A DNA stretch of 25,607 bases from a virus: positions 1 through 25,607 of the IMG/VR virus record IMGVR_UViG_3300027907_000051, one strand, 5' to 3'. Positions 5,069 to 21,172 of this stretch are shown in pieces. Position 1 is the stretch's first letter. Each line of letters starts with the position of its first letter. The position numbers and the translations under genes were made by a program. Under the pieces are notes generated by a model. It was not told where the DNA came from, searched no databases, and saw only the letters and a program-made list of their open reading frames with translations.

Positions 5069-5677
5069 ATGAACCTCCAGTCCACTGTCGCGCTTATCCT
5101 CCTTGCAGCCATTCCGAAGGCTTACGGAGACAATAACGCCATATCTAACGTCAACACGAACTCTTCTATGGGCGGTAGCGCTACAGGCGGAACTGGAATC
5201 GGACACGGAGGGCAAGGTGGAACAGGAGGCTCGGGAGGTCATGCGACAGGCGGTAGTTCATCTTCTACAGCTACCGGTGGAGATTCTGACGTGTCAGTTC
5301 AAGCTGTTAGCGGAAATGTCACAGGAGGTAATTCCTCCTCAACCTCTTCCCCGAACAATTCTCAAGCTATCACTTACGAGACCGTCCGACAGTCTCCTTC
5401 CGTATTCCTTACCGCTCCACATCCGACAGCTGTTTGTCAAGGATCACTAGGATTTTTCGCAACCTTTATCGGAGGTCTGGGATTCTCTACTTCCCACACC
5501 CTAGAAGAGTGCGAGAAGCGCGAAACGGCTCGCGTAGCTTTCGGCATAGATCAGCCGGCAATAGCCAAGCAGGTACTTTGCATGACCAAGTTCGCATCAC
5601 AAACAACTGAATGTAAACCACAGGGAGAAATTAATGTCAGTAAAGAAGAGGGGCTTCGGCTCGATGGATCGAGATAA
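5069..5677 (+). CDS. Secreted Gly/Ser-rich protein with four C-terminal Cys (202 aa)
   Basis: The ATG at 5069 begins a signal-peptide-like segment (hydrophobic residues 6-15, possible cleavage near AYG-D at 20/21). Its n-region lacks the usual basic residues. An in-frame TTG at 5009 would bury this segment, so I rejected it. Residues about 22-100 are a low-complexity Gly, Ser and Thr region with repeated ATGG and GGTG units, then a compact domain with four Cys (VCQG, EECEKR, VLCM, TECKP) that could form two disulfides in the periplasm. From memory, similar Gly-rich proteins ending in a Cys-containing domain occur in other phages without known function. The start has no good ribosome binding site and is seven bases after the previous stop. 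The 3' end overlaps the KGG gene by 44 bases. Confidence 0.72.
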   Translation: MNLQSTVALILLAAIPKAYGDNNAISNVNTNSSMGGSATGGTGIGHGGQGGTGGSGGHATGGSSSSTATGGDSDVSVQAVSGNVTGGNSSSTSSPNNSQAITYETVRQSPSVFLTAPHPTAVCQGSLGFFATFIGGLGFSTSHTLEECEKRETARVAFGIDQPAIAKQVLCMTKFASQTTECKPQGEINVSKEEGLRLDGSR

Positions 5678-5816
5678 ACAACGTAAGCTTGCTTCAATGG
5701 GCGGGAAGGCGGCTCACGCGGCTGGCACGGCTCATCAGTTCACTCCGGAGGAAGCAGCTCGTGCCGGTCGTATAGGTGGCCGGAATCGTGGCCTCAACCG
5801 GAATGCTCAGAAATGA
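5634..5816 (+). CDS. KGG-motif (stress-induced repeat type) small protein (60 aa)
   Basis: Residues about 7-55 contain two copies of the Gly-rich, basic unit of the stress-induced bacterial acidophilic repeat (KGG) family: GFGSMD...ASMGGKAAHA and a second around EEAARAGRIGGRNRG. These proteins are small, hydrophilic and probably disordered; chromosomal relatives are linked to general stress responses, and the phage role is unknown. GGGAG is well placed ahead of the ATG. The start lies inside the end of the secreted-protein gene (44-base overlap, different frame) and the stop overlaps the next start as ATGA, so it belongs to the compact operon. Confidence 0.78.
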   Translation: MSVKKRGFGSMDRDKQRKLASMGGKAAHAAGTAHQFTPEEAARAGRIGGRNRGLNRNAQK

Positions 5817-6608: not shown

Positions 6609-6931
6609 GACACTATTTCTTCCGAGGTAAGCACATTGCCTCAGTTAATCCGTCTGCAATCTTCGTGCATGGAAGAAAGCAAATTCCTCCAGGCCGAGCA
6701 TTCTTCTGCCCTATCTGTGCGGAAATCTGGTTGCTCGCGCCGGTTGACAGGGAGGAAACATTCGTGGATCATGTATTATGTGACAGGCATCCTCCGACTG
6801 CTTCACGTCGAGCTGGTAGTATGTTCCTATCCTGGGATGCGGAGTGGAACAAAGATCTACCTTCCGAACTTCTGAAAATGGAGTTCTTAACGTTGTATTC
6901 TCAAAAGGAAATGCAAAATGGCAACAGTTAG
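6605..6931 (+). CDS. Hypothetical Cys-containing protein, partial zinc-ribbon look (108 aa)
   Basis: Not recognised. Starts at an ATGA overlap. CPIC lies near residues 35-38, with a further Cys-x-Arg-His (LCDRH, around 58-62), which together could hold one zinc ion. The N-terminus is basic and aromatic (MRHYFFRGKHIASV). The C-terminal third is helical and acidic. It overlaps the ATPase gene at 6918 by 14 bases, so it is part of the recombination operon and is translated just ahead of the Sak4-type ATPase. It may act with that protein, by position only. Confidence 0.68.
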   Translation: MRHYFFRGKHIASVNPSAIFVHGRKQIPPGRAFFCPICAEIWLLAPVDREETFVDHVLCDRHPPTASRRAGSMFLSWDAEWNKDLPSELLKMEFLTLYSQKEMQNGNS

Positions 6932-7766
6932 CCCGATCATTGAAGGGATGGGATCTTCCTTCAATATTCCCGGTGCGAAAGTGCTTCTGATGGGCGATGC
7001 CGGTACAGGCAAAACTCATTCCCTTCGCACCTTGATTGAAGCAGGCATCGAAGTATTCGCCTTATTCACCGAGCCCGGCATGGAGGTCGTCTCGGACATT
7101 CCTGCCGATAAGCTCCATTGGAATTTCGTCAGTCCCTCGACAATCTCGTGGGAGAAACTGAAGGATTCCGCTCAAAAGATCAACACGCTTCCTTTCGAAT
7201 CCCTCTCCAAGCTCCCGCATATCAATCGCGGCCAGCACGCGGAGTTCATTACAGTTTTATCCGTACTCTCCGACTTCGTGGATCAACGCACAGGAGAGAA
7301 ATATGGCCCTGTCGATAATCTGAATCAGTCTCAAGCCCTCTGGATCGATTCCCTTTCCGGAATCAATACTATGGCGATGAATCTCGTAGCTGGATCGAAG
7401 CCGATGAAATCTCCAGCCGATTACGGCGTCGCAATGGACAATCTCGAGAATCTTCTGGAGAAGCTCACGCAGGATCTGAAATGCCACGTAATAGTAACTG
7501 GCCATGTCGAGCGCGAGACAGAGGAAGTGACTGGTCGAATCCTCAAGATGATCGCGACAATCGGCAAGAAACTTGCGCCGAAGATTCCGAAACTCTTTTC
7601 TGATGTAATAAACACTCAGCGCCACGAACGGGACTTCTCATGGTCTACAGTCACTCCCGATATGACGCTCAAAGCTCGGAACCTTCCTTGGGCAGATAAT
7701 CTTCGCCCATCATTCGTTCCTTTGATCGAGAATTGGAGACGTAAGAACGAACAGGCGGGACAATGA
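6918..7766 (+). CDS. Sak4-type RecA-like ATPase (AAA_24 type) (282 aa)
   Basis: A RecA-fold P-loop ATPase of the kind phages use for single-strand annealing and strand exchange. Walker A is GDAGTGKT at residues 26-33. A Walker-B-like strand ends in LWID at 141-144, and a later core strand (VIVTGH, about 191-196) carries the Thr-Gly-His usually found in this group. The length fits Sak4/AAA_24 proteins. It likely acts in the cytoplasm with the SSB-like protein at 8214 and the Fe-S nuclease at 3785, an arrangement seen in many phages. AAAAGGAAA precedes the ATG, and the start overlaps the previous gene by 14 bases. Its stop overlaps the next small gene as ATGA. Confident on the fold; the annealing role is inferred from family and neighbours. 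Confidence 0.88.
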   Translation: MATVSPIIEGMGSSFNIPGAKVLLMGDAGTGKTHSLRTLIEAGIEVFALFTEPGMEVVSDIPADKLHWNFVSPSTISWEKLKDSAQKINTLPFESLSKLPHINRGQHAEFITVLSVLSDFVDQRTGEKYGPVDNLNQSQALWIDSLSGINTMAMNLVAGSKPMKSPADYGVAMDNLENLLEKLTQDLKCHVIVTGHVERETEEVTGRILKMIATIGKKLAPKIPKLFSDVINTQRHERDFSWSTVTPDMTLKARNLPWADNLRPSFVPLIENWRRKNEQAGQ

Positions 7767-7936
7767 ACAAGATACAATTAATCAACGCCCTTGATGCGGC
7801 TATCGAGCATAGAATAGCCATAGCTCTTGCTGATGCAGATGTTATTCAAATAACACCGGAAGTATATGCACGGCGTCAGGAGACTTACCAGACATACCTG
7901 CGTCAAATCGCAGCAGAGATTCAGTACCGTGACTAA
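7763..7936 (+). CDS. Very small helical protein (57 aa)
   Basis: An open frame of 58 codons from ATG 7763 (ATGA overlap with the ATPase stop) to TAA 7934-7936. The protein starts MNKIQLINALDAAIEHRIA and is one or two charged helices ending in QIAAEIQYRD. Not recognised. Coupling to the ATPase stop and the even, non-repetitive codon pattern support it as a gene. Its stop is the last coding base before the structured region at 7937. Confidence 0.6.
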   Translation: MNKIQLINALDAAIEHRIAIALADADVIQITPEVYARRQETYQTYLRQIAAEIQYRD

Positions 7937-8178
7937 CGAATTGGAGAAACTAGACAGCAACTAACAAGTGCTGTTCCGACCGAGGTGAGATCGGGATATA
8001 ATCTTACGGAGGCGGCCGGAGTGTCTGAACCCTGAGGCATCTCCCGAAACACAAGGAACCAGATACATATAACTCGCAGATAGGCTGCGAATGGAAGGGG
8101 CAATTCCCGCGTATCTGATTCCGGTGTTTCTCCGGTAACGCATACTGTCGGTGGCTACAGACCATTAGCCACTATTTT
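7937..8178 (+). ncRNA. Candidate structured RNA, multibranch domain plus pseudoknot
   Basis: No plus-strand frame longer than about 15 codons is convincing here, yet helices nest across the whole region. P1: 7940-7950 with 8126-8136 (11 bp, two G-U), closing everything inside. P2: 7954-7962 with 7967-7974 (8 bp, one bulge). P3: 7985-7991 with 8001-8007. P4: 8017-8026 with 8035-8046, with bulges. P5: 8055-8066 with 8111-8122 (GGAA and CAGATAC arms, one C-A mismatch), capped by a hairpin 8074-8079/8085-8090 and a GA-rich loop. A pseudoknot and T-run follow at 8145-8178. It starts one base after a stop codon and ends before the SSB-like gene's ribosome binding site. I do not match it to any riboswitch, ribozyme, tRNA or tmRNA. 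It may be a free small RNA or a long leader. Helices were found by eye; no covariation is available. Confidence 0.6.
8145..8178 (+). terminator. Hairpin with T-run, also an H-type pseudoknot candidate
   Basis: GTGGCT (8151-8156) pairs with AGCCAC (8167-8172), extended by 8150-8173, and is followed by TATTTT. This would terminate transcription or mark the 3' end of the RNA at 7937. In addition CTGT (8145-8148) can pair with ACAG (8157-8160) in the loop. The result is a standard H-type pseudoknot: 4-bp and 7-bp stems, with loops of one, zero and six bases. Confidence 0.6.
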
Positions 8179-8213
8179 GATATAACTTTTAAACCTAAAC
8201 CTAAGGAACTACC

Positions 8214-8648
8214 ATGGCATCAGTATTTAACCCCGATACCTTCCTCAACATTGAAACTACCGAAGCCAACGAAACTACCTATACTCCGATACCCGAAGGC
8301 GAGCATGTGGCTGTAATTAAGGAAATTAAACCCCGCGTTGCGAAGGATGCAACTATCCTTGACGTTTACTGGGGTGTAGATGAACCTGAAATTATTGAGG
8401 TGACCGGAATGAAATCTCCGATTATCCGTCAAACTGTTTTCCTCGACATAAGTGAGAACGGCGGTCTCGCCGTTGGTAAGGGCAAGAATGTGCAACTCGG
8501 AAAGCTTCGCGAGGCAGTGGGCCAGAATCAAAACGGCAAGAAATGGAGCCCCGCTGATCTGCTCGGGCAAGTCGCAAAGATTAAAGTCGTTCATCGCATG
8601 TACGAGAACGAACCGCAAGCTGATGTGAAAGGCGTTACCGCCGTCTAA
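8214..8648 (+). CDS. SSB-like single-strand DNA-binding protein, DUF669 type (144 aa)
   Basis: Strand-rich throughout, opening with the FNPDTF...PIPEGEHVAVIKEI pattern typical of DUF669-type phage proteins, which are SSB-like and usually sit next to Sak4/AAA ATPases. Further strands around ATILDVYWGVDEPEIIEV and a closing strand (AKIKVVHRMYENEP) fit an OB-like fold. It has no acidic C-terminal tip, so it may bind partners differently from host SSB. It likely coats single-stranded phage DNA during replication and annealing with the ATPase at 6918. AAGGAA is well placed ahead of the ATG. It is preceded by the structured region at 7937-8178, which could control it. Confidence 0.75.
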   Translation: MASVFNPDTFLNIETTEANETTYTPIPEGEHVAVIKEIKPRVAKDATILDVYWGVDEPEIIEVTGMKSPIIRQTVFLDISENGGLAVGKGKNVQLGKLREAVGQNQNGKKWSPADLLGQVAKIKVVHRMYENEPQADVKGVTAV

Positions 8649-8672
8649 AAAGAACCATCCCTGTGGTCGATA

Positions 8673-8709
8673 GAGATCGTATAATCTCCGGGCAGATGCG
8701 AGGTCTGCC
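8673..8709 (+). promoter_or_regulatory. Two intergenic hairpins ahead of the membrane-protein gene
   Basis: GAGAT (8673-8677) pairs with ATCTC (8684-8688) around CGTATA, repeating the sequence of helix P3 at 7985-8007. GGCAGA (8691-8696) pairs with TCTGCC (8704-8709) around seven bases and is followed by GTTT. The TATAAT at 8680-8685 is a perfect -10 hexamer, but no -35 lies at a proper distance. The second hairpin may be a weak terminator for the SSB-like gene. Confidence 0.4.
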
Positions 8710-8732
8710 GTTTCCACTACAAGGGGAATAAA

Positions 8733-8966
8733 TTGCACAGAATTGGTCAATCGCGCAAGCATTCAGCGCTCGAATCCGTACTCAACATTCTGATAGGTGT
8801 AACTGTCGCCTACGTCGCTAATATGCTTATCCTCCCCGAGTTCGGATTCCAGATCTCCCACCAGCAGAACATGGTTCTTACTGTTATCTATACCCTTATT
8901 TCATTCCTCCGCTCCTATTTCGTGCGGAGACTCTTCAACAAGCTACATCTCATGGATATCTTATGA
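8733..8966 (+). CDS. Small two-helix membrane protein, DUF7220 type (77 aa)
   Basis: Starts at TTG, chosen because AAGGGGA is six bases upstream and the first residues (HRIGQSRKHSALESV) match the family start. Two membrane helices at about 15-35 (VLNILIGVTVAYVANMLILP) and 45-65, with a basic cytoplasmic end (SYFVRRLFNKLH) that should face the cytoplasm. This is the pattern I remember for the DUF7220 phage membrane proteins, whose function is unknown. Its stop overlaps the methyltransferase start as ATGA. Not a holin by length or neighbours, though a small membrane lysis or exclusion role cannot be ruled out. Confidence 0.72.
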   Translation: MHRIGQSRKHSALESVLNILIGVTVAYVANMLILPEFGFQISHQQNMVLTVIYTLISFLRSYFVRRLFNKLHLMDIL

Positions 8967-10258
8967 ACATAATACCTATAAGTAAGCTAATTATCTCCAC
9001 GAATCGGCAGCGTAAGACATTTCCCGGCGATGCACTTCAGGAACTTGTCGATTCGATCCTGTCGAAGGGGCTGATGCATCCTCCAGTTGTTCAAAACGAT
9101 GGAGTTACCCTCGTCGCTGGCGAGCGGCGCTATCGTGCACTTCAGGAAATTGCCAAGAAGAAGGAAGTGTACAAGTGCAATGGGCAGGTAATACCTGACA
9201 ATCACATTCCTGTCACCCTCCTCGGAGACCTCACCCCGTTCGAGATAATGGAGGCGGAACTCGAAGAAAACGTATGCCGTCTCGATTTATCCTGGCAGGA
9301 AAAATCTTCCGCTACTCTTGCCCTTCACGAGCTTCGCGTTCAGCAGGCAGCCGCCAAGGGCGAGGTTCATACTCCGACGGATACTCACGCTGAAATTACC
9401 GGCTCGCGGAACGGAGCAGGCTATCTTCGTGATTCCCTGATCCTTGCTAAGAATATTCATATCCCTGAAGTTCGTGCCGCCAAGACGCAGAAAGAAGCGG
9501 TCAAGGTTCTCCGGAAGATCAAAGAGACGGAGCATCGCGCAGACCTCGCGAAGAAAGTAGATATGAAAGGAATCCAGCACGATATTCGGCTCGGCTCGAT
9601 GTACGACTTCATGCCCGAGCTACCTGACAAACATTTCGATCTAATAATAACTGACCCTCCATACGGCGTAGATGCAGATGAGTTCGGAGATATGGCTTCC
9701 ACCGGACATAATTACAAAGACTCATGGGAGCTAGCTCGTGAACATTACAGGACGACTGCGGAAGAAGGCTACCGCGTTACGAAAGACGAAGCTCACGTCT
9801 ACGCCTTCTGTGCATTCGAGCGTTTTAAGGAAGTATCAGATCTCTTCGATCTTGCTGGATGGTTTGTATGGCCGCGTCCTATCATTTGGAACAAGGGAAA
9901 TGGCATGTTACCACGTCCTGAACACGGGCCGAGATACACTTATGAATGTATCCTTTTCGCTGCCAAAGGAGATAAACGAACACTGCTCGTCAGATCCGAC
10001 GTCATTTCTATGCCAGGTGACGCGAAACTATTGCACGGCGCTCAAAAGCCGGTTGACCTCTATGTCGATCTTATCTCGAGGTCATGTCTCCCGGGATCTC
10101 GCATTCTTGATCCCTTCGGTGGAAGCGGCCCTGCGATCAGTGCAGCCGCCCAAACTCGTTGTACAGTTACGCTATTCGAACTTGACCGAGACAATTACAA
10201 CATATGCCTTGGACGGCTCAAGGAAAATCCATTAGACCAGATCGAGTTGGAGGTATGA
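8963..10258 (+). CDS. ParB-domain / DNA methyltransferase fusion (431 aa)
   Basis: Residues 1 to about 110 are a ParB/Srx-like N-terminal domain, with the GERRYRAL signature at 53-60 and the preceding LVDSI..KGLMHPPVV segment. The rest is an adenine- or cytosine-N4 methyltransferase of the N6_N4_Mtase family. Its DPPY catalytic motif at 231-234 comes before the AdoMet-binding motif DPFGGSG at 383-389, the beta-class order with the target-recognition part between them. It would methylate phage or host DNA in the cytoplasm, perhaps protecting it from restriction; the target sequence is unknown. No cognate restriction enzyme is present, so it is an orphan. ParB-plus-methyltransferase proteins occur in other phages and mobile elements. 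The start overlaps the previous stop as ATGA. Confidence 0.88.
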   Translation: MNIIPISKLIISTNRQRKTFPGDALQELVDSILSKGLMHPPVVQNDGVTLVAGERRYRALQEIAKKKEVYKCNGQVIPDNHIPVTLLGDLTPFEIMEAELEENVCRLDLSWQEKSSATLALHELRVQQAAAKGEVHTPTDTHAEITGSRNGAGYLRDSLILAKNIHIPEVRAAKTQKEAVKVLRKIKETEHRADLAKKVDMKGIQHDIRLGSMYDFMPELPDKHFDLIITDPPYGVDADEFGDMASTGHNYKDSWELAREHYRTTAEEGYRVTKDEAHVYAFCAFERFKEVSDLFDLAGWFVWPRPIIWNKGNGMLPRPEHGPRYTYECILFAAKGDKRTLLVRSDVISMPGDAKLLHGAQKPVDLYVDLISRSCLPGSRILDPFGGSGPAISAAAQTRCTVTLFELDRDNYNICLGRLKENPLDQIELEV

Positions 10259-14343: not shown

Positions 14344-14640
14344 ATGGCCTACAAGGTGATCGAATCAAGAATTTCACAGATGGGATTCTGCTGCCCTTAT
14401 TCGTATCTATATGCTTGCAGGCACATGGCGACTCCCGATATCGCCGCGGAGCTTGTAGTCCATAAGCGATCAGTTCGTCGTTGGAGAGCTTCCTTCCGCA
14501 ATGGCACTCTCACTTGCGCAGGGAAGTCCTCGTGTCTCTTCAAGGAGGCTCAGAAAACACCTTCGAAATGTCCCTATGTAAGCCCCGTACTCTTGCAGGA
14601 TCTCGATCTTGCTCTAGACGCCGAACCGCTTTGCTCGTAG
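14344..14640 (+). CDS. Small HTH protein with Cys-rich C-terminus (98 aa)
   Basis: Residues about 28-52 form a helix-turn-helix (TPDIAAELVVHKRSVRRWRASF), in which the recognition helix carries the Arg-rich SVRRWR pattern. It is flanked by Cys: FCCPYSYLYAC at 15-25, then TC and SSC (57-64) and KCPY (75-78), which could form a zinc site. It is probably a DNA-binding regulator made last in the plus-strand transcript. AGGAG is well placed, two bases after the previous gene. Its last 101 bases run antisense through the end of the giant minus-strand gene at 14540, so at least one C-terminus is shaped by the other. Judged real from start signal, spacing and domain. Confidence 0.72.
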   Translation: MAYKVIESRISQMGFCCPYSYLYACRHMATPDIAAELVVHKRSVRRWRASFRNGTLTCAGKSSCLFKEAQKTPSKCPYVSPVLLQDLDLALDAEPLCS

Positions 14641-17600
14641 TTCTAACGTACTCTCGCATCTCTTTACCACTGAGCCTCAAGCCGCGATCAGGGATTTCAT
14701 CATTATACTCCACGACCGACTTGAGAACGTCCTCCCGCGCTTCGGGATTTCTTTCATCAACAGCCCTTTTATATGCTTTCTTCAATCCTAGCCGTCGTCC
14801 ATTCCAGTAGTCAGCCGATTGGCGTTTCAGTCGCTCGACTTCTTGAAATTTCGCAACCTCCGTTAAGCGGAAACCGGCGCCTATTGCCGCGATCTCCAGA
14901 GCTGAAGGTTCTCGAAGATTTCCATTTTCGTCTCTTAAGATCCGTTCGCCGCGGGAGCTTTTTACTCCTTGCTCACTTGCAGATACTGCCCGAGCTATTG
15001 CGCCTGCGGCACCCGGTAGACTCTTACCTAGCTCTTTCATACCAATATCGTCGGACAGTCCGAGTTCTAATCCACCTTTAACTACACCTCCAAATGGCCC
15101 ACTTACTGACGCAAAGAATTCACCAGCATACTCCTTCCAATTGTCACCCTGAGGGTTTATCATTTCTAATCCTGGCAATGGCTTGCCCAAACTGTACGAA
15201 CCAGAAAGATCTGCGCCCAGTACATCATGGAGAAATCCGCGTTGAATCACAGTTCGCCAGTAGCGTGACTCAATGCCCATCGCGTCCTTCAGAAAGCGTT
15301 GTCCTTCAACGCGAATATTTTCTCCCTTACCAAACAGCTTCCACATTCTCTGTACAAGCTCTAGAATCGTTTCTCCAAATGGCACTCCCTCTATTCCAGC
15401 AAGAGCTAGAAATATCAGCCACATACGCATCGTCGTGCCGCCAAGAACACTCCGAGGAGTCTGACCCCGATTGCGTTGCTCAGCTCGCGTCCCTCGCTCG
15501 TAACCGCCACTCATTATCCAAAGCATATATTGAGGATAAGATAGAAAAATCATGAGCAGGGATTTCTTCCCGCGAAGAGCCTCAGGCCTGTTCCCCGAGG
15601 CATAATCATTCTGTAATAGACGGGTCTTATTCGCTGCTTGCATATAGGCAAGGTTACTCGCCTCAGCCAATGTGTACAGCGGAGATCCGTCCTCCTCTTT
15701 CATCCCGAGGTATCTGGTTCTCTCCGCACGGTAGATCGAGAGAAGCGTTACCTGTCTGTTTCCTGTCTCCACAGCCTTGAACAGATACATTCCGGTATCT
15801 ACAAATAACCTGGCAGCTTTCCCCGCGAGAGTAGGCCGAATACGTCTCTGAAGATTCCCGGCATTAGCTAACCCAGACATGAAGTATCCGAATCCCTGAT
15901 CGATAATACCGTCTGCTAGAGCCCTCTCCCGAATATGATGCTCGTCTTTAGAAAATTTACTCGACATGAGACTCTTAATCGAACCGGCCAGGATTTTCCC
16001 GCCAGCAATATCTCCATAGTCGGCTGTCACGGCAGCTACAGTCTGGAACAATCCTGTCGCGTTCATCAGCGCTGTCTTGACCGAATACATCAGGAAGGTC
16101 AGCGATACAATACTCCGTACTCTATGATACTCCTCCATCGGATGCAGAATAAATTGCTGCGCCTTCTCCATAGTATCTAGCATTCGTTGCTTTACGCGAG
16201 CACCTTCAATATCTCCGGCATGTTTCAGATCTACCATCTCCGATCTAGTAAAGGCCCGAGCATTAGTCATACGTCTGCCGTACTTCATCTTCGAGACCGC
16301 ATTCGCGGAGTCCTCAATCCAGTTCGCGTAATTCTTCAGCATATCGGGAGAAGCGCCTGCGATCTTCGAAGCATCCCGAGCAAATTTCGAGAAGGCTTTC
16401 TCATCCCGCAAGGGAGTCATTGCATCTCCGATCTCCGCCAGCTGATCCGAGGTGAACTCCCCGGTATCCTCGAGACTCTGGAGAAAATCCTTCGGGAGAA
16501 TAAGTTGCGGCCCGGTTTTATCTTTTATCTTCATCCAGCGAAGATTCTCAGGTTCAACCGTTTTCTGGAAATTCTTCACAGCTATATCTTGTTCCGCAGC
16601 TGATTCAAAATGTCCCTGATAGACAAGCACACGCTTCTTATTCTCGTCCCGCTCGAAGACCTTCACCACGTAGTCTCCATAATGCCCTTGCGGAACGAAA
16701 GGAACTTTTCTCCACTTATCAGCTACAGCACGGATCTCATGCTCTCTCCGGCGTTGCATAAGTTCTGACTTCGAATATTTATCTTGAGCTATTTCAATAG
16801 CCATTTTTTCGATTATGCCTATATGCTCCAGCATCGAATTCTTGATATCCAGAATCAGTTTCCCTAGCACCTGTCCGTTCGGAGTGGTTACATCCAGCCC
16901 CCTCTGTTTCGCGTAGTCTATGAATCCTATGCCGCCGATGTGACTCCACTTACCATTCGCATCTTCCGTAAGCTCCGTCATGTGCCCGCCAGAATGGAAT
17001 TCATCTAGCAGTATCTTCTCAACAAGCGCGGAGTCAGCTGGCCCGAGATTCTCCCATTGATCGGCTATCTCCGTCCCCCACTTCAGCATATTGTTCTTCA
17101 TCGCCATGAGCATATTCTGATAGGAGTTGAACATGTTCAGCCCCATGTCGGAAGATGTATGAGCTAACTGCTGGATTTGCAGAACGTAGTATTCCAGATT
17201 CTTCGTAAAGTCGACAGCCTTCTTCCATATCTTAGTCTCCTTAATCCCGAGACGATTGAGGGTCTTCTCGACTTCCTGAGCATCTCCCGAGTCCTTGTCT
17301 AAGAATGGATGACCTCTTTCATCGTTAGCATAATCCTCTGCATTTTCTTCTTCACTATTCGGCCGTTGTGAATAAGGAGCCCATACAGCTAATAGCTTCT
17401 CACTTGGATATATCTGGCCAAATTCTAACCCTGCGTCTGCTGCATATCTTATCCAACGAGCATTGCGACTGGTACTACTGGTAACAGCAAAATCTTCTAC
17501 CCTACCTAATCGAACTCCAGCTAAATCAGACGTATAAGACCATTTCTTGCCTAGTACGAAGTCATGTACATAAGGGTGATATTCTTTCGCAGGTGCAAGA

Positions 17601-20600
17601 TTCTGCTTCCCTTTTATCTGTCGAATACCAGGTTCTTGAAACCAAGTTTGTTGATCCATAGGATCTGCATCTGGATCATTAGGAGTCCCCTCTTCTGGTT
17701 TCACCTCTATCGTTACATGAGGTCTGCCTTGTGGATCGCGGAGGGAATAGATCTCTGTATCTCCATTTTGTACAGCCTCACAATAGCCACCTACACAATG
17801 CCCCATAGAATCGCCTTCATTTCTAAGTGCGCCAGCTGATTCTACCTTCACCCACTGGAAGCCGTCAGGGTATTGTTTAACAATAGTTGTCCCTTCCAAC
17901 TGACCCTCAGTCGTTTCCATTTTCTTACGTTGTTTCGCATCCTGTATAGCAACTTCTCGTCCAGCCCGAACGAAGTCATACTGCTGGTATTTCGAAGGAT
18001 CAACATGGTTAGACATATAATCAACTACGTGAGCTATCCAATCCTGAGCAGCGAAAAGATATGCCATAGAATTTGGATGAGCACTTGCACCATCTATATT
18101 CCAGATAGGAATACCGGCTGCTATATTTTCAGTCCAATCCATTAAGCCTTCATCTCTATAATGGGCTTTAGTTTCGGCATCTAATTTCCATGACCTTACA
18201 ATAGAATCTGTTATATCTTCCCAAAGGTGAAACTCACCCTCATACGGAACTGGAATGTCTTTTAATGGATCATTCTTAGTTCCTATAAACTTATTCATAT
18301 AGCGTGCAAGAGACTTCCGTAACCAAGTCCTAACTTCTGGAGTTCCGCGAAAAGCAGAGCTTTCCATTAGCATATCGACTGCATAAGGATCCCAATTTCC
18401 GCCTGCTTCTTTTACATCCTTCTTGAGTCGACTCTCGGCAATATCTGCCAACTGATCTTCCACTTCTAGAAGCTCACCCCTACGGATCATTTGCATCATT
18501 TCAGCACGAGTATCGTCCTTAATATCTGGGAACATCTTTTTAACTCGCTCCTTAAGAAGCTCCTTAATCATAGGATCTTCCGCCAGTTCTTCCAAGATAT
18601 TCGTCGTGTTTCCTTCGCCCGCAGCTTCCTCCTTTTCCTTCTGCCTCGCCGCGACAATCTCCGGCAGATCCTCAATATCAGGTACTACCTTCGGCTTCAA
18701 CGCTCGAGGCTTACGAGTAGATTTCGGCTTAGTTCGTTTCGCCTCTCGCTTGGCAATCGCCAGTGCTTTCGCCTCTACCATTCCATCTACCCAAGATTGG
18801 AAACTAACTCCCGACTTGATAATCGTTTCTCCATCTACCCCTTTCGTAGACTTCAGCTGTTTAAATAATGCCCGAAGAGAATCTAACGCTTTCTTGAAGT
18901 AAACACCAAGCGCGGTTCCTTCGTCGATCTTGTTAACGTGCGCGTATCTGGAGAATTGCTCCGCCATATACTCGTTGAACATAAGGTAGTACGCCTCCGC
19001 TGCTGCGTCAGACATTTCTGGAGTAACGCCTTCACGAGTATCCCTCCCCATCGCATGAACAAGTTCAATCGCCGGAATCTGATTAAGCGGAAGGGAAGAC
19101 AGTCTCGAATCTCCCTTGAATTTCGCTTCATCCAGAAGTACCTTTTTCGCCCACGAGTACAGTTCTCTCCCTTGTTGCTTCGAAAGATCTGCTCCCACCT
19201 TCCATGTGCCTAGCCACTTCTCGACCAATTCCTCAGCCGTCATCGTACCGTTTAGCACGGACAGTTTCATCGCCTGATATTCACGGATCACAGCTGCCTC
19301 AGGTGCCGGCATAGACGCTAGCTCAGCCTCCTGATATACCTTACCACTATCCAATGCTCCGACTACATTTCGGAAGGGCTTCGGCATATTCTGAGCGAAG
19401 GCTCCCATTACCATAGCATGACCGAACTCGTGAGTTATAGCTCCGAATGTTTGCTGCTGAGTAAAAGGATTATAACCTGTGATAGGCTTATCCCCGAGCC
19501 ATGTTTCAGGCTTCGAGTTCTCGCCCCGGCTAGGCTTCTTGATTTCTCTCGGAGATATGATATGAATACCTGACGCAGACATCTGGTGAGCGCCGGTAGT
19601 CAGCCCCTTCAATCCTGTCAGATTCAAAACTATCCGTGATCCCTCAGGCATGAATTTCTTGCTCCATTCGGAGAGAGTTTCGCCTAAAGCTTTCGTATAT
19701 GCCGGGGAGAAATGTTCCTCATTACCTTGCAATACGACTACATCGTTAGCCCCTATTGCTGCTTGCTGAAGGTTTAATCCTACGTGAGCCGGATTCGTAC
19801 TCCAAGCAATCGGGCGCTGTGTCGGAGGCAGAAGATTAGGATATACCTCACTAGCTCGCCGTTCAGCAACAGCTCGACTCATCCCCTTGTCCATATCCTG
19901 CTGGATCAGATCTTCAGTTTTATGCCGGATATCGTCAGCAGTTTTATAGTTATTATGATCGGTAAGTATCTTGTCGAAGTCAGCCGTATCTGCCTGAGCC
20001 ACCGGATTGACAGGAGTATCAGTCGCCCCGCTCTTCATATTCTTTAGCTGTATATCAGCTAGTTTATCCTCCTCGGGAGTCAGCGGAGCCGTTTTCGAAG
20101 GTGCAACACTTATATCTGTTTGAACTAGAGCATTCTCATCCAGACCGGCTTGAGCTGCCTCCACTCGCTTCTGGAGATCCGTCATTAGATCGGCTTTCGT
20201 CTTATCCAGAGCCGCAGATTTATCCTGTTCTTTCCGATTGAGAAGCGTAGCTACCTTGAGTTGCGCAGCCGTCTGAGCACCCGCGAGACTGGCAGTACCT
20301 CCCGCAGCCAACGGAGCAATAAGCGCAGTATCAAGTACATCTGATCCCATCTCCTTTATGAATTCTTTAAACGGCTGATTAGGATTCGTATAGATAGTAT
20401 CTGATATCTTCTGCCAAGCTGTCGTAGGAATCTCCGTCATTTCCTCACGGAGGATGAACTTCCCGACAGTCTTCATAAAGGTCTCTTTTCCCATATCCTT
20501 GAGGAGACCGGCGACTGGAGCTATCCCGAGCGTACCTTCAAGCGCAGCCTGCGTATCAGCATTTTTGCGCGCATTATCAATAGATACTTTCGTATTACCT

Positions 20601-21172
20601 TGGGCATCAGGAGTTCTATCTTTAGCATATATCTGTCCTTTCGTTTGGCCGACACTGAGAGTTACCGCCGGGAGGATGGAGTTAGGAAGAACGTTTGCCC
20701 CTGCCTTAGCTATCGTAGGCATACCCATGAGAGGAACTGCTGGTGATAAATTCTTCGCTGCGACAGCTCCAGCTATTCCCGGAAGATTCTGCGCGATAGA
20801 CTGTGTTGCTCCCGAGACAATTTGCAAGGGGAACGATGGATTCGCAGGTTGTAATCCTTGTATCTCCTTCTGCCCCGCTTGCATTTCCATTTGCAGATTC
20901 GACAGCTTCTCACGCTTCTGCTCCGGCGTATCGGCATAGGGAGTTTTGATAATCCCTTGCGTAGGATCAGGATTCTCCATCTTGTACAGATCGACACCAC
21001 GGAAACCTTGCTTGATATTAGGAATGACGGTGTTAACTGCACTCTTCATTCCCTCTTTGGATAAGAGAGTAGTTGGTGCTACCTTCTCAAAGCCATGAGG
21101 AGCTACTGCCACCTTCTCAAAGCCGTGATCTTCTTCCTCTTCATCAACTCTCTCAAATCCATGAGTATCCAT
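14540..21172 (-). CDS. Giant polyvalent protein: zincin motif, PcfJ-like domain, hydrophobic C-terminus (2210 aa)
   Basis: The N-terminus has three HGFE(K/R)V repeats (residues 4-9, 16-21, 26-31), then a long Ala- and Gly-rich helical part. A zinc metallopeptidase (zincin) core carries HEFGH at 581-585 (ITHEFGHAMVM), with a later Glu-rich segment (FNEYMAEQF) that could give the third ligand. A PcfJ-like domain (about 1090-1200) shows the MGHCVGGY (His1125, Cys1126) and IKGKQN (1186-1191) signatures. The C-terminal third holds hydrophobic stretches near 1680-1705, 1865-1880 and 1910-1935 and resembles PLxRFG-type or large polyvalent-protein C-termini. Such proteins are packed in the capsid and injected, where they may cut or modify host factors. 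It is the last of a set of ejection-type genes, its ATG sharing one base with the previous stop. The metallopeptidase, PcfJ and polyvalent calls are firm as motifs, less so as activities. Confidence 0.85.
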   Translation of the reverse strand: MDTHGFERVDEEEEDHGFEKVAVAPHGFEKVAPTTLLSKEGMKSAVNTVIPNIKQGFRGVDLYKMENPDPTQGIIKTPYADTPEQKREKLSNLQMEMQAGQKEIQGLQPANPSFPLQIVSGATQSIAQNLPGIAGAVAAKNLSPAVPLMGMPTIAKAGANVLPNSILPAVTLSVGQTKGQIYAKDRTPDAQGNTKVSIDNARKNADTQAALEGTLGIAPVAGLLKDMGKETFMKTVGKFILREEMTEIPTTAWQKISDTIYTNPNQPFKEFIKEMGSDVLDTALIAPLAAGGTASLAGAQTAAQLKVATLLNRKEQDKSAALDKTKADLMTDLQKRVEAAQAGLDENALVQTDISVAPSKTAPLTPEEDKLADIQLKNMKSGATDTPVNPVAQADTADFDKILTDHNNYKTADDIRHKTEDLIQQDMDKGMSRAVAERRASEVYPNLLPPTQRPIAWSTNPAHVGLNLQQAAIGANDVVVLQGNEEHFSPAYTKALGETLSEWSKKFMPEGSRIVLNLTGLKGLTTGAHQMSASGIHIISPREIKKPSRGENSKPETWLGDKPITGYNPFTQQQTFGAITHEFGHAMVMGAFAQNMPKPFRNVVGALDSGKVYQEAELASMPAPEAAVIREYQAMKLSVLNGTMTAEELVEKWLGTWKVGADLSKQQGRELYSWAKKVLLDEAKFKGDSRLSSLPLNQIPAIELVHAMGRDTREGVTPEMSDAAAEAYYLMFNEYMAEQFSRYAHVNKIDEGTALGVYFKKALDSLRALFKQLKSTKGVDGETIIKSGVSFQSWVDGMVEAKALAIAKREAKRTKPKSTRKPRALKPKVVPDIEDLPEIVAARQKEKEEAAGEGNTTNILEELAEDPMIKELLKERVKKMFPDIKDDTRAEMMQMIRRGELLEVEDQLADIAESRLKKDVKEAGGNWDPYAVDMLMESSAFRGTPEVRTWLRKSLARYMNKFIGTKNDPLKDIPVPYEGEFHLWEDITDSIVRSWKLDAETKAHYRDEGLMDWTENIAAGIPIWNIDGASAHPNSMAYLFAAQDWIAHVVDYMSNHVDPSKYQQYDFVRAGREVAIQDAKQRKKMETTEGQLEGTTIVKQYPDGFQWVKVESAGALRNEGDSMGHCVGGYCEAVQNGDTEIYSLRDPQGRPHVTIEVKPEEGTPNDPDADPMDQQTWFQEPGIRQIKGKQNLAPAKEYHPYVHDFVLGKKWSYTSDLAGVRLGRVEDFAVTSSTSRNARWIRYAADAGLEFGQIYPSEKLLAVWAPYSQRPNSEEENAEDYANDERGHPFLDKDSGDAQEVEKTLNRLGIKETKIWKKAVDFTKNLEYYVLQIQQLAHTSSDMGLNMFNSYQNMLMAMKNNMLKWGTEIADQWENLGPADSALVEKILLDEFHSGGHMTELTEDANGKWSHIGGIGFIDYAKQRGLDVTTPNGQVLGKLILDIKNSMLEHIGIIEKMAIEIAQDKYSKSELMQRRREHEIRAVADKWRKVPFVPQGHYGDYVVKVFERDENKKRVLVYQGHFESAAEQDIAVKNFQKTVEPENLRWMKIKDKTGPQLILPKDFLQSLEDTGEFTSDQLAEIGDAMTPLRDEKAFSKFARDASKIAGASPDMLKNYANWIEDSANAVSKMKYGRRMTNARAFTRSEMVDLKHAGDIEGARVKQRMLDTMEKAQQFILHPMEEYHRVRSIVSLTFLMYSVKTALMNATGLFQTVAAVTADYGDIAGGKILAGSIKSLMSSKFSKDEHHIRERALADGIIDQGFGYFMSGLANAGNLQRRIRPTLAGKAARLFVDTGMYLFKAVETGNRQVTLLSIYRAERTRYLGMKEEDGSPLYTLAEASNLAYMQAANKTRLLQNDYASGNRPEALRGKKSLLMIFLSYPQYMLWIMSGGYERGTRAEQRNRGQTPRSVLGGTTMRMWLIFLALAGIEGVPFGETILELVQRMWKLFGKGENIRVEGQRFLKDAMGIESRYWRTVIQRGFLHDVLGADLSGSYSLGKPLPGLEMINPQGDNWKEYAGEFFASVSGPFGGVVKGGLELGLSDDIGMKELGKSLPGAAGAIARAVSASEQGVKSSRGERILRDENGNLREPSALEIAAIGAGFRLTEVAKFQEVERLKRQSADYWNGRRLGLKKAYKRAVDERNPEAREDVLKSVVEYNDEIPDRGLRLSGKEMREYVRTTSKAVRRLEQDRDPARVRGLHRDISKVFSEPP

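What the first reader, a model, noticed from the sequence alone, without database searches (positions are those of the whole stretch)
7937..8178. Candidate new structured RNA of about 200 bases between the recombination and SSB-like genes
The region carries no convincing gene but holds nested helices over its full length. An 11-bp outer helix (7940-7950/8126-8136) closes the whole domain, with four branches inside and a pseudoknot/terminator behind. It begins directly after a stop codon. I see no match to known riboswitches, ribozymes, tRNA or tmRNA. The location suggests either control of the SSB-like gene or a free phage RNA.
Basis: partly seen in the sequence, partly recalled or inferred. 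Interest (0 to 1): 0.82.

Follow-up and report, generated by a model that had tools for sequence, protein, structure and literature searches.

The report
Pseudoknot leader of phage SSB-like gene
The stretch is a real folded RNA in front of a phage gene for a probable single-stranded-DNA-binding protein; its last part is a knot shared by many uncultured phages, and it most likely lets the protein limit its own production, as in phage T4.

Summary
The structured RNA is real (z -3.7 against shuffles, no Rfam match, no shared reading frame), but it is best read as a cis-acting 5' leader of the SSB-like gene at 8214, not a free RNA. Two related phages carry the same RNA between the same genes, and in all three the core folds independently to the same shape.

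The 3' part (8134-8172) is an H-type pseudoknot. Pseudoknots at this place are enriched over shuffles in 32 of 69 SSB-like leaders, against 4-7 of about 70 control stretches; in the main subgroup 15 of 17 pairs covary. That subgroup shares a cassette: TTGACA promoter, pseudoknot at the predicted first base, nearly G-free linker, SD, gene. The gene product is a predicted OB-fold protein closest to PrgE.

[quoted passage not shown] Protein binding is inferred, not shown. The window's clade lacks the promoter and carries about 180 nt of extra structured RNA of unknown role. Verdict: new variant of a known kind.

The parts
6918..7766 (+). Sak4-like ssDNA annealing protein gene (upstream neighbour)
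   Evidence: PHROG 124 E 5.3e-16; Pfam AAA_24
7763..7936 (+). 57-aa ORF of unknown function; its stop codon directly precedes the RNA
   Evidence: no clear family
7940..8136 (+).
7954..7974 (+). P0 hairpin, ACAGCA/UGCUGU
   Evidence: pairing probability 1.0 in the window; matching but weak hairpins in L002 and L003
7978..8013 (+). P1 hairpin GACCG..GGAGGC: stem 7985-7991/8001-8007 plus 7980-7981/8011-8012, loop CGGGAUAUA
   Evidence: sequence conserved in L002 and L003, stem kept with changes
8016..8135 (+).
   Evidence: in the minimum-energy fold of L002, +3.0 kcal/mol in L003, +7.3 in the window; one two-sided change
8022..8039 (+). P3 hairpin, UGUCU/AGGCA (CUGGA/UCCAG in L002 and L003)
   Evidence: 5 of 5 pairs changed on both sides; probability 0.99 in the window
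8049..8127 (+). P4 arm: ACAC/GUGU, GGAA/UUCC and CAGAUAC 8060-8066/GUAUCUG 8111-8117, with hairpins P4b 8075-8089 and P4c 8093-8107 inside
   Evidence: same shape [] reached independently in three phages; changes
8134..8172 (+). H-type pseudoknot: S1 outer GGU 8134-8136/ACC 8161-8163, conserved GCAUA 8140-8144, S1 inner CUGU 8145-8148/ACAG 8157-8160, S2 GUGGCU 8151-8156/AGCCAC 8167-8172
   Evidence: pseudoknots at this place in relatives
8173..8204 (+). Unstructured, nearly G-free linker with UUUUAAACCUAAACCUAA
   Evidence: 1 G in the 27 nt before the SD; UAAC motifs enriched in the family's linkers
8203..8209 (+). Shine-Dalgarno region AAGGAAC, not part of the pseudoknot
   Evidence: sequence
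8214..8648 (+). SSB-like gene, predicted OB-fold protein of 144 aa: the gene whose leader this is
   Evidence: AlphaFold2 pLDDT 89.9; PrgE Foldseek E 1.9e-5 and VIA Z 11.6

Best explanation
[quoted passage not shown] Proposed steps: the SSB-like protein, once in excess over single-stranded DNA, binds the pseudoknot; further monomers spread along the G-poor unstructured linker and cover the ribosome-binding site, shutting off translation; free ssDNA draws the protein away and restores synthesis. Shown by sequence comparison: the shared structure, its place and the linker composition. Predicted: the OB fold. Inferred by analogy: binding, spreading and repression. In the window's clade about 180 nt of extra structured RNA (P0-P4) precede the pseudoknot and the promoter found in many relatives is missing, so the leader is probably part of a longer read-through message. 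The role of that extra domain is open (stabilisation, processing or a second input).
For: Pseudoknots better than nearly all shuffles in 32 of 69 SSB-like leaders, against 7/67, 4/68 and 5/71 in controls. Covariation in 15 of 17 pairs, score 0.481 against 0.188 shuffled and at most 0.145 slid. A covariance model finds only SSB-like leaders in 568 kb, including a GenBank phage not used to build it. Predicted -10 box ends 6-10 nt before the pseudoknot in 16 of 19 loci; linkers to the SD with 0-3 G; terminator-like hairpin after the gene in 21 of 69 loci against 1.2 expected. Window pseudoknot core at -69 to -42, close to T4's pseudoknot about 67 nt upstream with an unstructured stretch over the RBS (PMC3014915, PMC535899). 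OB-fold protein. Same RNA in two related phages.
Against: No binding or expression data. The window, L002 and L003 are not found by the subgroup's covariance model; the link is by position, geometry and GCAUA. About half of the leaders show no clear pseudoknot by my scan, and some have gaps too short for one. In the window the whole-element fold without pseudoknots prefers other pairings. UAAA repeats typical of T4 are not enriched in the family, UAAC is. The protein has no gp32 family match.
Confidence: 0.58

Rival explanations
1. The pseudoknot is a 5'-end stabiliser or translation enhancer of a strongly expressed mRNA. It blocks decay from the 5' end and keeps the ribosome site open, without the SSB-like protein binding it.
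For: In promoter-bearing relatives the pseudoknot lies at the predicted first base of the message, and the linker is open.
Against: Such a role does not call for a pseudoknot tied to this one gene; the control genes' leaders in the same phages lack it. The window's clade has no promoter at the pseudoknot.
Confidence: 0.17
2. A riboswitch-like or attenuator element that senses another ligand and switches transcription or translation of the gene.
For: Compact pseudoknot with a conserved internal loop (GCAUR and UAAA). In the window S2 can be read as a terminator-like hairpin, 8150-8173.
Against: The SD lies about 30 nt beyond the pseudoknot and is not part of it; T-runs after S2 are broken and not conserved; no Rfam riboswitch match. 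An SSB gene suggests no metabolite.
Confidence: 0.08
3. P0-P4 in the window's clade is a processing or self-processing element that cuts the read-through message to leave a 5' end at the pseudoknot, taking the place of the promoter.
For: The window and its two relatives lack the TTGACA promoter found in about half of the leaders and have P0-P4 there instead.
Against: No known ribozyme or processing signature. L039 has both a TTGACA site and a long leader with a P1-like loop. Only three members.
Confidence: 0.07
4. A free trans-acting phage RNA of about 200-240 bases.
For: Length and compact fold.
Against: No promoter-like site in 7700-8800, no real terminator at the 3' end, and the 3' pseudoknot keeps a fixed place before the gene across many phages.
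Confidence: 0.05

Closest known systems
T4/T2/RB69 gene 32 autogenous translational operator (PMC535899, PMC3014915)
   Same: Leader of an SSB gene; H-type pseudoknot with abutting stems about 70 to 40 nt upstream of the start codon; unstructured G-poor stretch from the pseudoknot over the ribosome site; OB-fold SSB-like product.
   Different: The protein is not gp32 by sequence family; stems and loops differ; linkers carry UAAC more than UUAAA repeats; a second S1 segment with a conserved GCAUR internal loop in the main subgroup; in the window clade a further 180-nt structured domain upstream. Repression not shown.
STAXI motif (PMC2864571)
   Same: Pseudoknot structures near genes for single-stranded-DNA-binding proteins.
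   Different: STAXI is a tandem array of two or more pseudoknot repeats, perhaps acting as DNA; here there is one pseudoknot at a fixed place before the start codon, and no Rfam match.
rpsO (S15) translational operator pseudoknot (mentioned in PMC3014915)
   Same: Pseudoknot in a translational operator used for autogenous control.
   Different: Different protein and fold; from my own knowledge, in rpsO the pseudoknot includes the ribosome site, which is not the case here.

Membership tests
T4 gene 32-type SSB translational operator | Lies in the 5' leader of a gene for an SSB protein | tested here: met
   Directly upstream of the SSB-like gene in the window and relatives; product is a predicted OB-fold protein close to PrgE. 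ssDNA binding itself not tested.
T4 gene 32-type SSB translational operator | H-type pseudoknot with coaxially stackable stems | tested here: met
   S2 abuts inner S1 in the window, L002 and L003; covariation of all three helices in the main subgroup.
T4 gene 32-type SSB translational operator | Unstructured A+U-rich stretch with UUAAA/UAAA repeats from the pseudoknot over the ribosome site | tested here: inconclusive
   Linker G-free or nearly so and the window has UUUUAAACCUAAACCUAA, but in the family UAAC, not UAAA, is enriched.
T4 gene 32-type SSB translational operator | Protein is a gp32 homologue | tested here: not met
   No PHROG or Pfam family for the window protein; two relatives match DUF669 only below its cut-off.
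T4 gene 32-type SSB translational operator | The SSB binds the pseudoknot and represses its own translation | not testable with these tools
   Needs binding and reporter assays.
STAXI motif | Match to the Rfam model; two or more tandem pseudoknot repeats | tested here: not met
   No Rfam match in the window or in 15 relatives; one pseudoknot per leader.
Known riboswitches, ribozymes, tRNA, tmRNA | Match to the Rfam family model or ARAGORN | tested here: not met

The most novel reading that the evidence does not exclude
P0-P4 (about 7950-8135) is a new structured RNA class: a sensing or self-processing domain that, in one phage clade, has replaced the promoter in front of an autoregulatory SSB pseudoknot and adds a second layer of control.
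Probability: 0.12. Interest if true: 0.8.

Novelty: new variant of a known kind. Interest (0 to 1): 0.6.

Why it matters
Autogenous control by an SSB through an mRNA pseudoknot is described, in the papers found here, only for T4-type phages, and those authors note that it was not known whether other SSB proteins do the same (PMC535899). Here an SSB-like family with no gp32 family match, in many uncultured phages, carries a covarying pseudoknot at the same place. This suggests that such regulation arose more than once or is old and widespread, and it gives many natural variants for working out how an SSB tells its own message from other nucleic acid.

Tried and rejected
Close DNA relatives in GenBank phages: none. 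Rfam at permissive thresholds: only chance hits to eukaryotic lncRNA and a Pseudomonas sRNA. Pattern scans for the conserved blocks found only the two relatives plus chance matches such as L025 and L028-L034. Protein-coding reading of the stretch: no shared frame. Promoter reading of the TATAAT in the P1 loop: no -35 at a proper distance, the loop differs between homologues, and the stem is kept with changes on both sides. Attenuator reading: T-run broken and not conserved. The covariance model R1 does not detect the window, so I do not claim membership in that subgroup by model score. A scan by the Sak4 protein profile found no further close relatives; of the 15 new, more distant leaders it gave, 4 show the pseudoknot signal. 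Prokaryote genomes hold almost no relatives (2 loci). A search for a fourth carrier of P0-P4 gave only the doubtful L039.

Full report
What was checked. The stretch 7937-8178 folds at -85.1 kcal/mol, z -3.73 against dinucleotide shuffles. It starts directly after the stop of a 57-aa ORF (7763-7936) that follows a Sak4-like gene (6918-7766; PHROG 124). It ends 35 nt before the SSB-like gene at 8214. Rfam 15 has no match at gathering thresholds in the window, and only a chance lncRNA hit at permissive thresholds in the stretch. ARAGORN finds nothing. The record is an IMG/VR virus contig of 25,607 bases.

Homologues. Searching with the Sak4-like protein found two phages (L002, L003; 76% and 73% identical Sak4) with a related RNA in the same gap. 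They share the block GACCG-N-GGU..UACGGAGGCRGCC (P1) and the block UUUCU..GGU-R-A-Y-GCAUAC-N-G near the 3' end. Two pattern scans of all viral contigs found no other phage with either block in this setting. No reading frame is shared between the window and the other two in this stretch.

Architecture of the upstream part. The segment between P1 and GCAUA is 122, 123 and 122 nt long. In each phage it folds on its own to the same abstract shape, a hairpin followed by an arm with two hairpins, which occurs in only 4-7% of shuffles. The energies are z -4.06, -3.96 and -1.29. L002 and L003 are closer to each other than to the window, so these are not three fully independent tests. Hand-matched helices show two-sided changes in most pairs of P3, P4, P4b and both pseudoknot stems. 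Those helices were chosen by eye, so that count is illustrative and the shape test is the stronger evidence. The layout P0, P1, three-way junction P2/P3/P4 is exactly the minimum-energy fold of L002, costs 3.0 kcal/mol in L003, and costs 7.3 in the window.

The pseudoknot. At 8134-8172 lies an H-type pseudoknot: S1 inner CUGU/ACAG and S2 GUGGCU/AGCCAC, with S2 abutting S1. In L002 and L003 the stems are CAGGG/CCCUG with AUGGC/GCCAU, and CAGGU/ACCUG with ACAGU/ACUGU. A protein-profile search brought in 80 loci with the SSB-like gene. In the 120 nt before that gene, 32 of 69 distinct leaders hold a pseudoknot better than nearly all shuffles. The same test gives 7 of 67 before Sak4, 4 of 68 before the methylase and 5 of 71 inside the gene. 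In the main subgroup of 18 loci the structure has two-sided changes in 15 of 17 pairs. Its covariation score is 0.481, against 0.188 after shuffling and at most 0.145 when one side is slid. The slid control keeps relatedness, so shared ancestry alone does not explain the score. A covariance model of the stem finds only these leaders in 568 kb of loci, among them the GenBank phage MW202489, which was not in the model. It does not find the window or its two relatives, whose loops differ. Their link to the family is by position, geometry and GCAUA. A descriptor of that geometry occurs in 22 of 84 leaders, including all three, against 0.028 expected per 130 nt. Fifteen further leaders from a later scan, more distant in the gene, gave 4 positives.

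The cassette. In 16 of 19 pseudoknot loci a TTGAC(A/T) box, 16-18 nt before a -10-like box, places the end of that box 6-10 nt before the first base of S1, so the predicted message begins with the pseudoknot. From the pseudoknot to the Shine-Dalgarno the RNA holds 0-3 G. A terminator-like hairpin follows the gene in 21 of 69 loci against 1.2 expected. UAAC is enriched in the linkers (43 against 18.7), UAAA is not. The window, L002 and L003 lack the promoter and have P0-P4 in its place.

The protein. The 144-aa product has no Pfam or PHROG family; two relatives match DUF669 only below its cut-off. AlphaFold2 gives a confident model (pLDDT 89.9). Its best PDB match is PrgE of plasmid pCF10 (Foldseek E 1.9e-5; VIA Z 11.6 with rmsd 3.4 over 112 residues, next family at 6.8). 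PrgE is an OB-fold protein described as a non-typical SSB (PMC11137577). A phage Sak4 stimulated by its cognate SSB is on record (PMC5928155), which fits the neighbouring genes. ssDNA binding of the phage protein is therefore likely but not shown.

Mechanism. In T4, gp32 binds a pseudoknot about 67 nt upstream of its start codon and spreads along an unstructured stretch with UUAAA/UAAA repeats over the ribosome site (PMC535899, PMC3014915). The window has a pseudoknot core at -69 to -42 and an unstructured, nearly G-free linker with UUUUAAACCUAAACCUAA before the SD. The match of place, topology and linker makes autogenous translational control the best explanation. Structure and position are shown; the OB fold is predicted; binding, spreading and repression are inferred. 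It is not filed as a member of the gp32 operator family, because the protein has no gp32 family match, but it should work like one.

What stays open. The role of P0-P4 is unknown. Only three phages carry P0-P4 clearly. L039 may be a fourth, with the same loop string UCGGGAUAUAA downstream of its own TTGACA box. About half of the family's leaders give no clear pseudoknot by my scan, and some have no room for one, so the control may have been lost or replaced in those.

Noticed in passing
L010:2600-2700 and L014:2595-2680: The SSB-like leaders of these two phages lack the usual pseudoknot but have CCCGC-AU-CCGGU-AA-GCGGG, whose loop CCGGU can pair with an upstream (A/G)CCGG: a pseudoknot with the order of stems reversed. 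It resembles the window's P2 3' strand CUCCGGUAACGC.
   Followed up: partly
L039:2780-2997: A TTGACA box about 217 nt before the gene, then a leader of about 180 nt whose first hairpin has the loop string UCGGGAUAUAA, the same as the window's P1: a possible fourth carrier of part of the large domain.
   Followed up: partly
L024:5450-5567 (Vibrio phage vB_VspS_VS-ABTNL-3): By eye, a promoter-like TTGCCA..TATATT followed by a UAGGUCGG/CCGACCUA stem whose loop GUUAA may pair downstream: a possible pseudoknot leader in a phage with a known host, useful for experiments.
   Followed up: no
8963-10258 (+): ParB-like N-terminal part fused to a DNA methyltransferase; the fused gene recurs after the SSB-like gene in the relatives.
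   Followed up: no
14540-21172 (-): A 2210-aa protein with one PcfJ-like stretch (Pfam E 1.9e-9) and an HEFGH metalloprotease-like motif seen by eye.
   Followed up: no
5634-5816 (+): 60-aa protein with a KGG stress-induced repeat motif (Pfam E 5.5e-9), unexpected in a phage replication region.
   Followed up: no
8733-8966 (+): 77-aa protein of family DUF7220 (E 2.2e-25) just after the SSB-like gene; L009 and L021 carry a similar-looking small protein near it (by eye).
   Followed up: no
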